From: a virus
DNA: 64,000 bases
Virus record (IMG/VR): IMGVR_UViG_3300033997_000310
Coordinates: 50,802-114,801 of that record
Strand: one strand, 5' to 3'
Positions 612 through 42,340 of this stretch are shown here, piece after piece (position 1 is the stretch's first letter; each line of letters starts with the position of its first letter). The translations under genes and the position numbers were made by a program. Under the pieces are notes generated by a model, which was not told the DNA's origin, did no database searches, and was given only the letters and a program-made list of their open reading frames with translations.

Positions 612-668
612 GGGCCTGACGGCTCGCTTCGGCGGGCCGTCTCCTTATCGGCACAAGGAAGTCTCGCC

Positions 669-36151: not shown

Positions 36152-37093
36152 TCAGCGCGCGAACCGCGCTTCATCCTCTGGCTTTTTGATCGGCCAGTTG
36201 CTGCCCTGAAAAAAGTAGAGCCCGATGCGCTCAAAGCTGATGCCGAAGGCGCGGAATGGCACAACGGCGCGAAAGGATTCCCCGCCGCTTTTCCACTTCC
36301 ACCGTACCCACAGTTCGGAGCCGTTGAGCGTGCCGCCGCTGGCCGGCGCCAGGAGTGTCGGCCTCCACAGCAGGCCACGGCGGATACGGTACTGCACGTC
36401 ACTGATCTCCCGCCGGAACCAGCGCCATGCACGATGCCAGCGCGGCTCGTGGTGCAGCATGGTGGCTGCCCATATCTGCACCGCTTCGTAGGCCCACCGG
36501 CCCTTGGGCGGATAGGACTCGTCGATCATGCTGTACCACTCGTCGATATCATCGAACATGCGGGCCATCTTGTCCGGGCACAAGTCGCCATCTTCACGCA
36601 GGCCCTTGGCGGCCTTCATCTGCACGGCGCCGCTACGGTGGTTGCCACTGCCCCACTCGTATTTCTCGACCAGTGCCTTCCAGATAGGCAGGTCTTCGTC
36701 CTTATCGCGCCACTTCATTTCGTCATCGGCCTGAGACAGGATGCGCTTGACGGTCTTTTCGCGGTCGAACTCGCGGCTGAGGTTGGACTTCTCCATCAGG
36801 TAACAGAAGTCAGCTCGGTGCGCCCACAGGATGGCATGCCAGAGGGTGGGGCAGGCCTGATAGTGCCGGAACACCACCGTGTCGAAGCCGCCATGCACCA
36901 TGATGCAGCCGGGCGTGTAGGTGATGCGGAATCCATCGCGATGGCCGTTGTAGACGCGCCATGTTCCGGGCGCGACTTTCTGCATGGTGGCGTCGGCATA
37001 AGAGGTGCGCGCCATCCTCGCGATATCCTGGTGATCCCCGTACTCGTTGATCGGCGGCATGATCGCCGGCCGCCGCCGGCGCAGCGCCATCAT
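36152..37093 (-). CDS. hypothetical protein
   Basis: 313 residues, Trp- and Arg-rich, with no recognised motif. Several HxxxC- and D/E-rich stretches could bind metal but no arrangement is diagnostic. It overlaps the HAD-like gene upstream by four bases. The first ATG codons are close together (residues 1, 2 and 12), leaving the start uncertain. Confidence 0.4.
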   Translation of the reverse strand: MMALRRRRPAIMPPINEYGDHQDIARMARTSYADATMQKVAPGTWRVYNGHRDGFRITYTPGCIMVHGGFDTVVFRHYQACPTLWHAILWAHRADFCYLMEKSNLSREFDREKTVKRILSQADDEMKWRDKDEDLPIWKALVEKYEWGSGNHRSGAVQMKAAKGLREDGDLCPDKMARMFDDIDEWYSMIDESYPPKGRWAYEAVQIWAATMLHHEPRWHRAWRWFRREISDVQYRIRRGLLWRPTLLAPASGGTLNGSELWVRWKWKSGGESFRAVVPFRAFGISFERIGLYFFQGSNWPIKKPEDEARFAR

Positions 37094-37497
37094 TGGTGGA
37101 TGTCCGGCGATTCCACGCCGGACAGGTTCTCGACCAACTGGCCGGTGTTGAACACGACCTGAACAGCTCGGTCGTCGTAGAGACGCAACATTGCTACGTC
37201 CTTCTGGTTGGTGACCGGCAGGCGGACGCCGAAATACTTCTCCGTCCAGTCCTGAATGATTCGCACCATGCGCTCGACGTCCTGGAGGATTTCGGCGCTT
37301 GGCAAGCCCATGGCCTTACTGCCGACGCCGCCATCGACGCGGGCCGTGAAGATGCGCACTTCCTGGCCATCGGCGATCCACTGGCGCACCCGGTCGGCCA
37401 TGGCCGGCACAGGCTCTCCGATGTGTTCCTCGCCTCGCCACACGTCATACTGTGCCAGCGTCCCGTCGAGATCGACGCCGATCCATCCGTTTTTCAT
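37090..37497 (-). CDS. HAD-superfamily phosphatase-like protein
   Basis: 135 residues. HAD motif I VDLDGTLA at 8-15, motif II in EVRIFTARV, and a later YDDRAVQV segment with a D for metal binding. It resembles short phage HAD hydrolases that act on nucleotides or polynucleotide ends. It lies 53 bp after the NAMPT-like gene, so a function in nucleotide or NAD+ metabolism with that pair is possible. Confidence 0.65.
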   Translation of the reverse strand: MKNGWIGVDLDGTLAQYDVWRGEEHIGEPVPAMADRVRQWIADGQEVRIFTARVDGGVGSKAMGLPSAEILQDVERMVRIIQDWTEKYFGVRLPVTNQKDVAMLRLYDDRAVQVVFNTGQLVENLSGVESPDIHQ

Positions 37498-37549
37498 GTA
37501 ATCCCCCGGTGGTGCCCGCCCAGCCGAAGCCGGGCGGGGGTGATGATGA

Positions 37550-39154
37550 TCAGAGATGTTCGGCCAGGGCGGCGCGGATGTCGGCCAGCGTCTGATGACG
37601 CTTCATCTGGCCATTCTCGAATACGACCTCCAGCACGCCGGCGTTGGCCTGCTCGCGCGTCTGCCGATCCAGCAGATGGAAGCCGAAGCCGGTCTTCTCG
37701 ACACGGATCAGGCCAGCGGCCGACTTCTTCACGCCACTGTCGGTCTTCGGGTCCTTCTGCAGGACGCGCTCCTCGCCGTTGACGACGCCATAGGTGGCCT
37801 TGATCGCCGTGCCGAAGGTATCGCGGGTGACGTACTGGTAGGTGTAACTGCCGATGCCCAGCACCACGTTCGTGCTGGCAAATCCCTTGGCGGCCAGGCG
37901 CTTCAAGATGCGCTCCGCCCGATCCAGGGTGATGCTGTCGCCGTAGATCAGGCCGACGTGGCTGTCCAACTGCCGGTGACCTGTGCTTGTCTCGGTGCCG
38001 CCGAACACGTCCCACAGGCACTGGATAGCGCCGCGCTGGGCCGGAGTTGGCTCCCATATCCGATGCGTCGAAATGCTGGGCCCGTGCGCGGCACCGGTGT
38101 TGTGGGCCTCGACTTTGTAGAAGTGGCCGTCCTGGTGGAACACATCCACCCCAGCCTGCAGCATGTCCATCAGGCTGACGAACTCGCTGCGATCCGGCAC
38201 GCCGCAGATGATGTCGACCGGGTCGCCGCTATCGGGCCGGAACACCACCTTGCCGTCGCGCGCCAGGATCTCATCCTTTAGCTTGACCGTGAACTCGGTC
38301 ATCACCTTCCAGAAATCCCAGGTGTCGCTGACGATGCTGACGATACCGGACGGGTAGGTGTGGATCAGGCGGCGGAAGGTTTCGACTTCGTCATCATGCC
38401 CGCCCATGCACATGACGCTGTGCTCCGTGGCCGGCACGGACCCGCCGACGAAGGTCTCGGCGCCGCTGTAATATTCCTCCAGGAAGTCGATGGCGGGGAT
38501 GGTATCGGTTCCGGTGAAGCTCAGCAGGTGGGCCGCGCCGCTCGACATGGCGTCGTGAATGCCGCTCATGCCCCGGAAGCTGAAATCGTGGCCCTGCCAC
38601 AGCGCGAAGGCGGGATCACCGCCGGTCTCGACCGCCATGCGATGGAACAGCCGGCGATACTCAAAGGCGGTAGTCGCCGTCGTCATCGGCTTCCACAGTT
38701 CGGCGCTCAGTTGCGTCTCGACATAGTTTGTCAGCCACGCGAAATCTGGGTGTGTGTTCTCGATCGTGAACATGGGCACGCGGATGTCGACGCGACTGCC
38801 TTCCGGCACGGCCTTGATGCGCAGCGGCAGATAGCCCAGGTCATGCAGCGCCGCGATGTGATCCGCGCCGACCGCTCCGGCGCCCAGATAGCCGTCCATG
38901 CGACGCGTGTAACGGGCGACGACCGTATCCCGAGACAAGCCGAAGAACGAGCGGTCCCAGGTGTCGATCAGGAGCCACTGACACACGGCCTGGAGACCGA
39001 AGAACACGACCTTGTGGTCGAAGTCAGACAGCATCTTGGCGTGCGCATCACCGCGGCACGTCCAGTTGCTGTAGACCAGTTGGGTGCCGGGCGGATACTG
39101 CTTGCGATGCCCGGTCTTATAGCCATCGGTGGCGTGGGGTGCGAAGATGTTCAT
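37550..39154 (-). CDS. nicotinamide phosphoribosyltransferase-like enzyme (NAMPT/Namat type)
   Basis: 534 residues. Family features: opening ATDGYKTGHRKQYPPGTQ, then GHDFSFRGMSG, TEHSVMCMGGHDDE, VSDTWDFWKV and VFRPDSGDP (the D-S-G-D-P loop binds the phosphoribosyl group), and the C-terminal NVVLGIGSYTYQYVTRDTFG. NAMPT makes NMN from nicotinamide; the phage homologue Namat instead joins nicotinamide to ADP-ribose pyrophosphate. It starts five bases after the Prs-like gene, and the pair matches the phage NAD+ reconstitution arrangement (NARP1). Which reaction it performs cannot be told from sequence. Confidence 0.8.
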   Translation of the reverse strand: MNIFAPHATDGYKTGHRKQYPPGTQLVYSNWTCRGDAHAKMLSDFDHKVVFFGLQAVCQWLLIDTWDRSFFGLSRDTVVARYTRRMDGYLGAGAVGADHIAALHDLGYLPLRIKAVPEGSRVDIRVPMFTIENTHPDFAWLTNYVETQLSAELWKPMTTATTAFEYRRLFHRMAVETGGDPAFALWQGHDFSFRGMSGIHDAMSSGAAHLLSFTGTDTIPAIDFLEEYYSGAETFVGGSVPATEHSVMCMGGHDDEVETFRRLIHTYPSGIVSIVSDTWDFWKVMTEFTVKLKDEILARDGKVVFRPDSGDPVDIICGVPDRSEFVSLMDMLQAGVDVFHQDGHFYKVEAHNTGAAHGPSISTHRIWEPTPAQRGAIQCLWDVFGGTETSTGHRQLDSHVGLIYGDSITLDRAERILKRLAAKGFASTNVVLGIGSYTYQYVTRDTFGTAIKATYGVVNGEERVLQKDPKTDSGVKKSAAGLIRVEKTGFGFHLLDRQTREQANAGVLEVVFENGQMKRHQTLADIRAALAEHL

Positions 39155-39159
39155 GGTGT

Positions 39160-39966
39160 TCAGGCCTTGATGATGGTGACGAAATCGCCCGGCACCTGGC
39201 CGAACGGGTTGGCGGTGTAGATATGATCGATGTGCTTGCTCAGCTCATCGAAGCCGGCACTGAAGATGCTGTGGGTGATGTAGAGCAGCACGCGACCATC
39301 GGTGAGCGGCTGCAGCACCTTCGCCAACTCGATGAAGGTGCGGCCGCCGTCACAGATATCGTCCACGACCAGGAAGTCAGCCTTGCCGACGTGCTCGCTG
39401 TACGCGACCGTGCCGGTGATGCTGCCGTCCCTCGGGTCACGCGTCTTGTCGGCGCGGACCATGGGACAGCCCAGCGCCTTGGCGATGCCGCTGACCTTCT
39501 TGATCGCGCCCGCGTCCGGCGCCACCAGCACGCAGTTGCCGACGTCCAGATAGCGCAGGAAGTCGAGTGCCGGCTTGTTGATGCACCGGTCCAGCAGCGC
39601 CGGACCAACATCGCTGTGGCAGTCCCAGACCGTCACGCTGGCATAGCGCTGCGCGTTGATCAGGTCGCACATCACCCGCAGCGACAGAGCCTCACCTGGC
39701 GCGCAGACGCGGTCCTGACGGGCATAGGGCAGATAGGGGCAGGTGAGATGGACCGGGATGTCTCCGAACTGGCGGCGGGCCGCATCGGTCAGCAGCAGCA
39801 GCCGCATGATGTCGGATGCGTCCGTCATCATCGCTGAGATGTACAGGTCCTTGGCAATGTGCCGGAAAGGAAACGGATTGATCCGGCAGTGAGCCTCACC
39901 GCCGCTGAAGTTGTGCCAGACCACGTCGGCGGCATAGATGTCGACGCAGAGGGTGATGTTACCCAT
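39160..39966 (-). CDS. ribose-phosphate pyrophosphokinase-like enzyme (Prs/Adps type)
   Basis: 268 residues, shorter than housekeeping Prs (about 315). Visible are the flexible loop PYLPYARQDRVCAPGEALSL, VAPDAGAIKKV, and the PRPP-binding loop FLVVDDICDGGRTF. Prs makes PRPP; the phage relative Adps pyrophosphorylates ADP-ribose, the product of NAD+-destroying defence enzymes. Gene order Prs-like then NAMPT-like, five bases apart, supports a paired pathway that rebuilds NAD+. Confidence 0.8.
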   Translation of the reverse strand: MGNITLCVDIYAADVVWHNFSGGEAHCRINPFPFRHIAKDLYISAMMTDASDIMRLLLLTDAARRQFGDIPVHLTCPYLPYARQDRVCAPGEALSLRVMCDLINAQRYASVTVWDCHSDVGPALLDRCINKPALDFLRYLDVGNCVLVAPDAGAIKKVSGIAKALGCPMVRADKTRDPRDGSITGTVAYSEHVGKADFLVVDDICDGGRTFIELAKVLQPLTDGRVLLYITHSIFSAGFDELSKHIDHIYTANPFGQVPGDFVTIIKA

Positions 39967-41923: not shown

Positions 41924-42340
41924 TCAGGCAGCCTGCTTCTTGCCCAGACCGTAGCTCTTCGCCAGACCGGAACGCACGGCCGCATAGTTCGGGGCCGTCA
42001 TCGGATAATCCACGGGCAAGCCCCACTTGCGCCGGTATTCATCCGGCGTCATGCCAAGCTTCGCCAGATGCCGCTTGAGCATCTTCAGCTTCTTCCCGTC
42101 ATCCAGGCAGACGATGTAGTCCGGCGTCACCGACTTGCGGATCGGCACTGCGGGCTCCAGCTTGGCCGGCTCGGGCGGGCTGGTGGCGGCGGGCGGTTCC
42201 GAAGTCAGATCACTCAGCGTGGAATAAATGGTCTTCAGCAGGGCGGGCAGGTAGTCCATCGGCGTGTTGGCCGGATTGGCGGCGATGAACGCCGTGGCGA
42301 CAGCCGTAGTGCTGGCCAGCAACTCGGAGTGCGTATGCAT
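41924..42340 (-). CDS. MucR/Ros-family transcriptional regulator
   Basis: 138 residues. The C-terminal half carries the alphaproteobacterial Ros/MucR zinc-finger pattern (VTPDYIVCLDDGKKLKMLKRHL, given as residues 70-91, then LGMTPDEYRRKWGLPVDYPM and AVRSGLAKSYGLGKK). These proteins bind AT-rich DNA and silence or tune many host genes. A phage copy may control phage or host promoters. The N-terminal half is helical and Pro/Ala-rich. Confidence 0.9.
   Translation of the reverse strand: MHTHSELLASTTAVATAFIAANPANTPMDYLPALLKTIYSTLSDLTSEPPAATSPPEPAKLEPAVPIRKSVTPDYIVCLDDGKKLKMLKRHLAKLGMTPDEYRRKWGLPVDYPMTAPNYAAVRSGLAKSYGLGKKQAA

What the first reader, a model, noticed from the sequence alone, without database searches (positions are those of the whole stretch)
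37090..39966. NAD+ reconstitution cassette: Prs-like and NAMPT-like genes five bases apart
Phage NAD+ reconstitution pathways pair a Prs-like enzyme (Adps) with a NAMPT-like one (Namat) to rebuild NAD+ from ADP-ribose and nicotinamide after Thoeris, DSR or SIR2-type defence. The short Prs and the gene order fit. The following HAD phosphatase-like gene is a possible third member.
Basis: partly seen in the sequence, partly recalled or inferred. Interest (0 to 1): 0.7.

Follow-up and report, generated by a model that had tools for sequence, protein, structure and literature searches.

The report
Phage NAD+ rebuilding gene pair (NARP1)

Summary
On the minus strand a 268-aa Prs-like gene (39160-39966) and a 534-aa NAMPT-like gene (37550-39154) lie five bases apart, and a 135-aa HAD-like gene (37090-37497) follows. 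The NAMPT-like protein matches crystallised SPbetaL1 Namat far better than any NAMPT. It keeps every catalytic residue and carries the published Namat signature in full (GSYTYQYVTRD). Nine NAMPT controls lack that signature. So does HdNadV, an NMN-making enzyme inside the same clade, which lost exactly the two adenine-stacking aromatics. The Prs-like partner keeps the Prs catalytic residues and has the Adps residue at all eight positions found to separate Adps from canonical Prs. The virus contig shows no NMNAT, Nudix or macro-domain gene, so the two-step Adps-Namat route fits best. Relatives share the pair but hardly its flanks. The HAD gene is a weak third member: its homologues lie away from NARP1, and a 10-bp UUCG hairpin separates it from Namat. 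One deviation: the variable clamp loop has Ala-His where Arg, Lys or Tyr is usual at the third position. Verdict: new member of a known kind (NARP1) in a probably temperate siphovirus; substrate use is inferred, not shown.

The parts
39160..39966 (-). Adps-like gene (ADP-ribose pyrophosphate synthetase), 268 aa; Prs fold, short C-terminus
   Evidence: Pfam/PHROG; NCBIfam canonical-Prs model below cut-off, 107.8 vs 113 bits, as for SPbetaL1 Adps 106; Prs catalytic residues kept and all 8 Adps-type switches present; AF2 model pLDDT 85.5 matches PRPP synthetases
37550..39154 (-). Namat-like gene (nicotinamide ADP-ribose transferase), 534 aa
   Evidence: 527 bits to SPbetaL1 Namat 9W5X vs 221 to NAMPT; all catalytic residues; tree; model Z 46.7 to 9W5W vs 41.7 for the best human NAMPT
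37820..37852 (-). selectivity-clamp helix motif GSYTYQYVTRD (residues 435-445) within Namat
   Evidence: matches the published Namat consensus GSX-Phi-X-Phi-X-Phi-TRD (PMC12774641)
39155..39159 (-). five-base gap ACACC between the two genes
37515..37538 (-). 10-bp stem with UUCG loop after the Namat gene, no T-run; terminator-like or processing hairpin
   Evidence: one of two such UUCG hairpins found in the window
37090..37497 (-). compact HAD-superfamily phosphatase-like gene, 135 aa; neighbour, probably not part of the cassette
   Evidence: PHROG 1238 1.1e-6; HAD-IIIA model only 0.0066, below cut-off; homologues not linked to NARP1

Best explanation
The two genes form a NARP1 cassette. After a host defence (TIR, SIR2 or SEFIR NADase) splits NAD+ into ADP-ribose and nicotinamide, the Prs-like enzyme (Adps) moves pyrophosphate from ATP to ADP-ribose, giving ADPR-PP. 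The NAMPT-like enzyme (Namat) then joins nicotinamide to ADPR-PP and yields NAD+ in one step, so infection can go on. Shown here: gene pairing, conserved catalytic residues, the Namat-specific clamp motif, Adps-type residues in the partner, and no NMNAT domain found on the virus contig. Inferred: substrates, reaction and protection.
For: Namat 9W5X 527 bits vs 221 for NAMPT; the KVP40-like NAMPT used as control does the reverse, 216 vs 329. Catalytic residues D13, Y15, F189, R192, D215, A242, R306, D308, G360, D361 all kept. GSYTYQYVTRD = full Namat consensus; nine NAMPTs lack it, and four phage NAMPTs of that set sit next to an annotated NMNAT-type gene. HdNadV, on the Namat side of the tree but NMN-making, reads GAQTYQRNTRD, losing exactly the two stacking aromatics, and has no Prs beside it (NMN production PMC6095924). 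The window groups with the Namats of SPbetaL1, a Felixounavirus and ICP1, split from NAMPT at SH-aLRT 100. The partner has all 8 Adps-type switches. No NMNAT, Nudix or Macro domain found on the 114.8-kb contig. ICP1's pair restores NAD+ against SIR2-HerA in vivo (PMC11559045).
Against: No biochemistry. Namat itself also makes NMN from PRPP in vitro (PMC12774641). The clamp loop has Ala-His where Arg, Lys or Tyr is usual at the third position. Adps specificity determinants are not published, and the canonical comparison set was only four Prs. A bacterial relative (Acinetobacter, 58% identity) sits beside an NMNAT/Nudix gene.
Confidence: 0.88

Rival explanations
1. Ordinary nicotinamide salvage: a Prs makes PRPP and a NadV/NAMPT makes NMN, which the host's NMNAT turns into NAD+ (NARP2-like logic without its own NMNAT).
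For: HdNadV lies on the Namat side of the tree and makes NMN; Namat keeps PRPP activity in vitro; an Acinetobacter relative sits beside NMNAT/Nudix.
Against: HdNadV lacks both clamp aromatics and has no Prs neighbour, the window has both. Phage NAMPT controls sit beside NMNAT-type genes and lack the motif. The partner is not a canonical Prs. Bacteria with the pair also keep a separate canonical Prs.
Confidence: 0.09
2. A three-gene cassette in which the HAD-like phosphatase feeds or clears an ADP-ribose derivative for the other two enzymes.
For: HAD-like genes of the same PHROG lie between Namat and Adps in crAss-like phages cr111_1 and DAC15, and HAD-like ORFs lie between Adps and Namat in L010, L022, L024, L075.
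Against: The window's HAD is of another branch (single-sequence phmmer did not link it to those); its 17 fetched viral homologue loci have no NARP1 gene; none was found beside the closest Namats (L002, L004, L007) and it is distant in L018; a UUCG hairpin separates it.
Confidence: 0.08
3. A decayed or repurposed pair with no activity.
For: Only the clamp-loop deviation (Ala-His) and a 50-aa insertion at residues 323-372.
Against: Open frames, every catalytic residue kept, other Namats of 530-590 aa are common, confident models of both proteins.
Confidence: 0.03

Closest known systems
NARP1 of Bacillus phage SPbetaL1 (Adps + Namat; PDB 9W5W, 9W5X)
   Same: Gene order Adps-Namat, adjacent; catalytic core; GSxTYQYxTRD clamp motif; short Prs-like partner; large SPbeta-type phage
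   Different: About 52% identity in the structure alignment for Namat, 25% for Adps; clamp loop Ala-His instead of Arg; 50-aa insertion in Namat; 5'-phosphate loop CDGGRTF instead of SSFGGTF
NrsAB of Vibrio phage ICP1 (anti Nezha/SIR2-HerA)
   Same: Prs-like then NAMPT-like gene; GSYTYQYVTRD identical to the window; CDG-type phosphate loop
   Different: Lytic phage; about 50% identity; a gap with a small annotated ORF between the genes in ICP1_2001_A
NARP1 of Felixounavirus phages (relatives of Bas63)
   Same: Adjacent pair; GSYTYQYMTRD; DDICDGGRTF loop as in the window
   Different: Longer Namat (593 aa); 45-base gap; lytic enterobacterial phage
NARP2-type phage NAMPT (KVP40-like EniLVp02, VspSw_1, Mendera, C1)
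   Same: NAMPT fold, restores NAD+ by salvage
   Different: No clamp aromatics (mostly GGGLLQ..RD); near an NMNAT/Nudix gene, no Prs partner found beside it
HdNadV of Haemophilus ducreyi pNAD1 (PDB 9KE8)
   Same: Nearest NMN-making enzyme to the Namat clade, 44% identity
   Different: GAQTYQRNTRD, both adenine-stacking aromatics lost; no Prs partner beside it on the plasmid

Membership tests
NARP1: Namat | NAMPT-like catalytic core incl. R306 equivalent and catalytic His | tested here: met
   All listed contact residues of the core identical; R306 equivalent and the ATEH histidine kept
NARP1: Namat | Selectivity-clamp helix consensus GSX-Phi-X-Phi-X-Phi-TRD, aromatic at positions 3 and 7 | tested here: met
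   GSYTYQYVTRD; nine NAMPT controls and HdNadV lack it
NARP1: Namat | Clamp loop with a stacking residue (third Arg/Lys/Tyr, or the fourth) | tested here: inconclusive
   Third residue Ala, fourth His; His could stack, but Ala is not in the published set
NARP1: Namat | Groups with validated Namats, apart from NAMPT | tested here: met
   62 rows incl. window, SPbetaL1, Felixounavirus, ICP1 vs 9 NAMPT, SH-aLRT 100; but HdNadV also falls on the Namat side
NARP1: Adps | Prs-like gene next to Namat | tested here: met
   Five bases upstream
NARP1: Adps | Sequence type of Adps rather than canonical Prs | tested here: met
   8 of 8 switched positions as in the Adps set; canonical set only 4 proteins
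NARP1 | ADP-ribose + ATP -> ADPR-PP, then + nicotinamide -> NAD+ | not testable with these tools
   Needs purified enzymes
NARP1 | Protection against NAD+-depleting defence | not testable with these tools
   Needs infection or co-expression assays
NARP2 | NAMPT with NMNAT encoded by the phage | tested here: not met
   No CTP_transf_like or NUDIX match on the virus contig; the contig may be incomplete

The most novel reading that the evidence does not exclude
HAD-family phosphatases are a recurrent optional third enzyme of NARP1 (here after Namat, in crAss-like and other phages between Adps and Namat), acting on an ADP-ribose derivative made by host defence, much as RyDEP feeds NARP1 in phage DyoEdafos.
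Probability: 0.1. Interest if true: 0.5.

Novelty: new member of a known kind. Interest (0 to 1): 0.22.

Why it matters
It adds a probably temperate siphovirus to the phages carrying this broad counter-defence, with clamp residues that can be checked at once. The comparison with HdNadV gives a sequence test that separates direct NAD+ rebuilding from ordinary nicotinamide salvage. It also shows that NARP1 loci hold optional extra genes (macro-domain, HAD, deoxyribosyltransferase-like) that could be tested as feeders of ADP-ribose.

Tried and rejected
Near-identity DNA search of the region in phages: no match. RyR-domain search of the contig was uninformative, as the control rang nowhere. Promoter and terminator consensus scans were no better than shuffles. 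Shared fold alone was rejected as evidence of substrate: the Namat model matches Namat (Z 46.7) and HdNadV (45.8), which is a tie. Tree position alone was rejected for the same reason. The Nature 2024 NARP paper is not held; it was used only through papers citing it.

Full report
Observation. The Prs-like ORF is 39160-39966 (268 aa), with a GGAGG just before its ATG. The NAMPT-like ORF is 37550-39154 (534 aa) and starts five bases after the Prs stop codon. Pfam and PHROG matches are strong for both. A 135-aa HAD-like ORF (37090-37497) follows after 52 bases. The window is part of a 114.8-kb IMG/VR virus record. It has a 1687-aa tape measure, tail genes, a RecT, an SSB and an integrase, so it is probably a temperate siphovirus. 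Its host is unknown; a ROS/MucR-type regulator and HAD homologues in rhizobial phages hint at an alphaproteobacterium (inference).

What the NAMPT-like gene is. The published determinants of Namat come from the SPbetaL1 crystal structures (PMC12774641). The catalytic core is shared with NAMPT. A clamp helix with the consensus GSX-Phi-X-Phi-X-Phi-TRD, aromatic at positions 3 and 7, confers use of ADPR-PP, helped by a variable loop. The window protein scores 527 bits against that Namat and 221 against mammalian NAMPT. A KVP40-like phage NAMPT does the reverse, 216 and 329. All catalytic contact residues are identical and the helix reads GSYTYQYVTRD. Nine NAMPT controls lack the motif, reading mostly GG[AG]LLQ..RD. 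Four of these are phage NAMPTs that sit beside NMNAT-type genes.

A sharper control. HdNadV (PDB 9KE8) makes NMN in E. coli (PMC6095924) and yet falls on the Namat side of the tree. So neither tree position nor fold settles the substrate: the model's Z is 46.7 to Namat and 45.8 to HdNadV, a tie. HdNadV reads GAQTYQRNTRD. It has lost exactly the two adenine-stacking aromatics, and its plasmid shows no Prs gene beside it. The window has both aromatics and the partner gene. This pairing of motif and neighbour is the main reason for the high confidence.

A reservation. At the third place of the clamp loop the window has Ala, followed by His, where Arg, Lys or Tyr is usual. Several crAss-like Namats deviate there too. 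In the SPbetaL1 enzyme single clamp changes cost only 1.3 to 1.7-fold, so this is a detail to test and not a refutation.

What the Prs-like gene is. It has the Prs fold. It falls under the cut-off of the canonical Prs model to the same degree as SPbetaL1 Adps (107.8 and 106 bits, cut-off 113). Compared with E. coli Prs and three canonical Prs from other genomes, 51 Adps-type proteins keep the catalytic residues and differ at eight positions that are fixed in the canonical set (E. coli A86L, G92P, R104G, A131S, G172A, L228F, A245L, A256G); the window has the Adps residue at all eight. At a ninth such position (A198, mostly Thr in Adps) the window has Asp, neither type. Bacteria carrying the pair keep a separate canonical Prs, so the linked gene is an extra, divergent copy. 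Its specificity for ADP-ribose is inferred from this and from its partner.

Distribution. Among 97 distinct viral contigs found with this gene or an alignment of its relatives, 94 have the clamp motif and 88 a Prs-like gene on the locus. Flanking genes of the window are hardly shared with these loci; only the pair is. It therefore behaves as a mobile cassette. No NMNAT, Nudix or macro domain was found on the contig, which argues against a NARP2-type system, with the caution that the contig may be incomplete. Homologous pairs are shown to work in published studies: SPbetaL1 (PMC12774641), ICP1 NrsAB against SIR2-HerA (PMC11559045), and DyoEdafos in vitro (PMC13232231).

The third gene. The HAD homologues found in viruses (17 loci) have no NARP1 gene in reach, and L018, a close relative in Namat, has its HAD 3.1 kb away on the other strand. 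A 10-bp UUCG hairpin lies between Namat and the HAD. On the other side, HAD-like genes of a different branch sit between Adps and Namat in six other loci, two of them crAss-like phages with the same PHROG assignment. So an HAD link to NARP1 in general is open, but the window's HAD is more likely a neighbour.

Verdict. NARP1, a new member of a known kind, confidence 0.88. The enzymology and the protection are inferred.

Noticed in passing
L015:349-2730: A viral Namat (793 aa) carries an intein-like insertion of about 270 aa exactly inside the selectivity-clamp motif (GSY|C...HN|TYQYVTRD), with a weak LAGLIDADG match.
   Followed up: partly
L066:4491-4928; L077:4218-4736; L083:4455-4970; L109:3117-3635; L111:3854-4492; L040:1663-2166: Macro-domain-like genes lie between Adps and Namat or just upstream in several phages; a macro gene near NARP1 is already noted for Pseudomonas phage Adele (PMC12846349).
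   Followed up: partly
L010, L022, L024, L075, L027, L039: HAD-like genes (FDFDNT/FDFDGT-type motif) lie between the two NARP1 genes in crAss-like and other phages, in both gene orders.
   Followed up: partly
L087:1692-2171; L109:4434-4916; L120:4430-4954: Genes resembling nucleoside 2-deoxyribosyltransferases (IFLAGSIE..EDWQ) lie between Adps and Namat in three viruses; no NCBIfam match for the one tested.
   Followed up: no
L123-L146: NARP1-like pairs occur in bacterial genomes, above all in many Sphingobacterium species, beside a separate canonical Prs in the three genomes checked.
   Followed up: partly
L026 (CAKLQF020000015.1): The record named 'Acinetobacter phage MD-2021a' looks bacterial around this locus (transporters, AraC regulator); its Adps-Namat pair is followed by an NMNAT/ADP-ribose pyrophosphatase gene.
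   Followed up: no
window 618-641 and 37515-37538: Two 10-bp UUCG-loop hairpins without a T-run, each just after a gene end, perhaps this phage's terminators.
   Followed up: no
window 41924-42340: A ROS/MucR-type regulator in a phage replication region, a hint of an alphaproteobacterial host.
   Followed up: no
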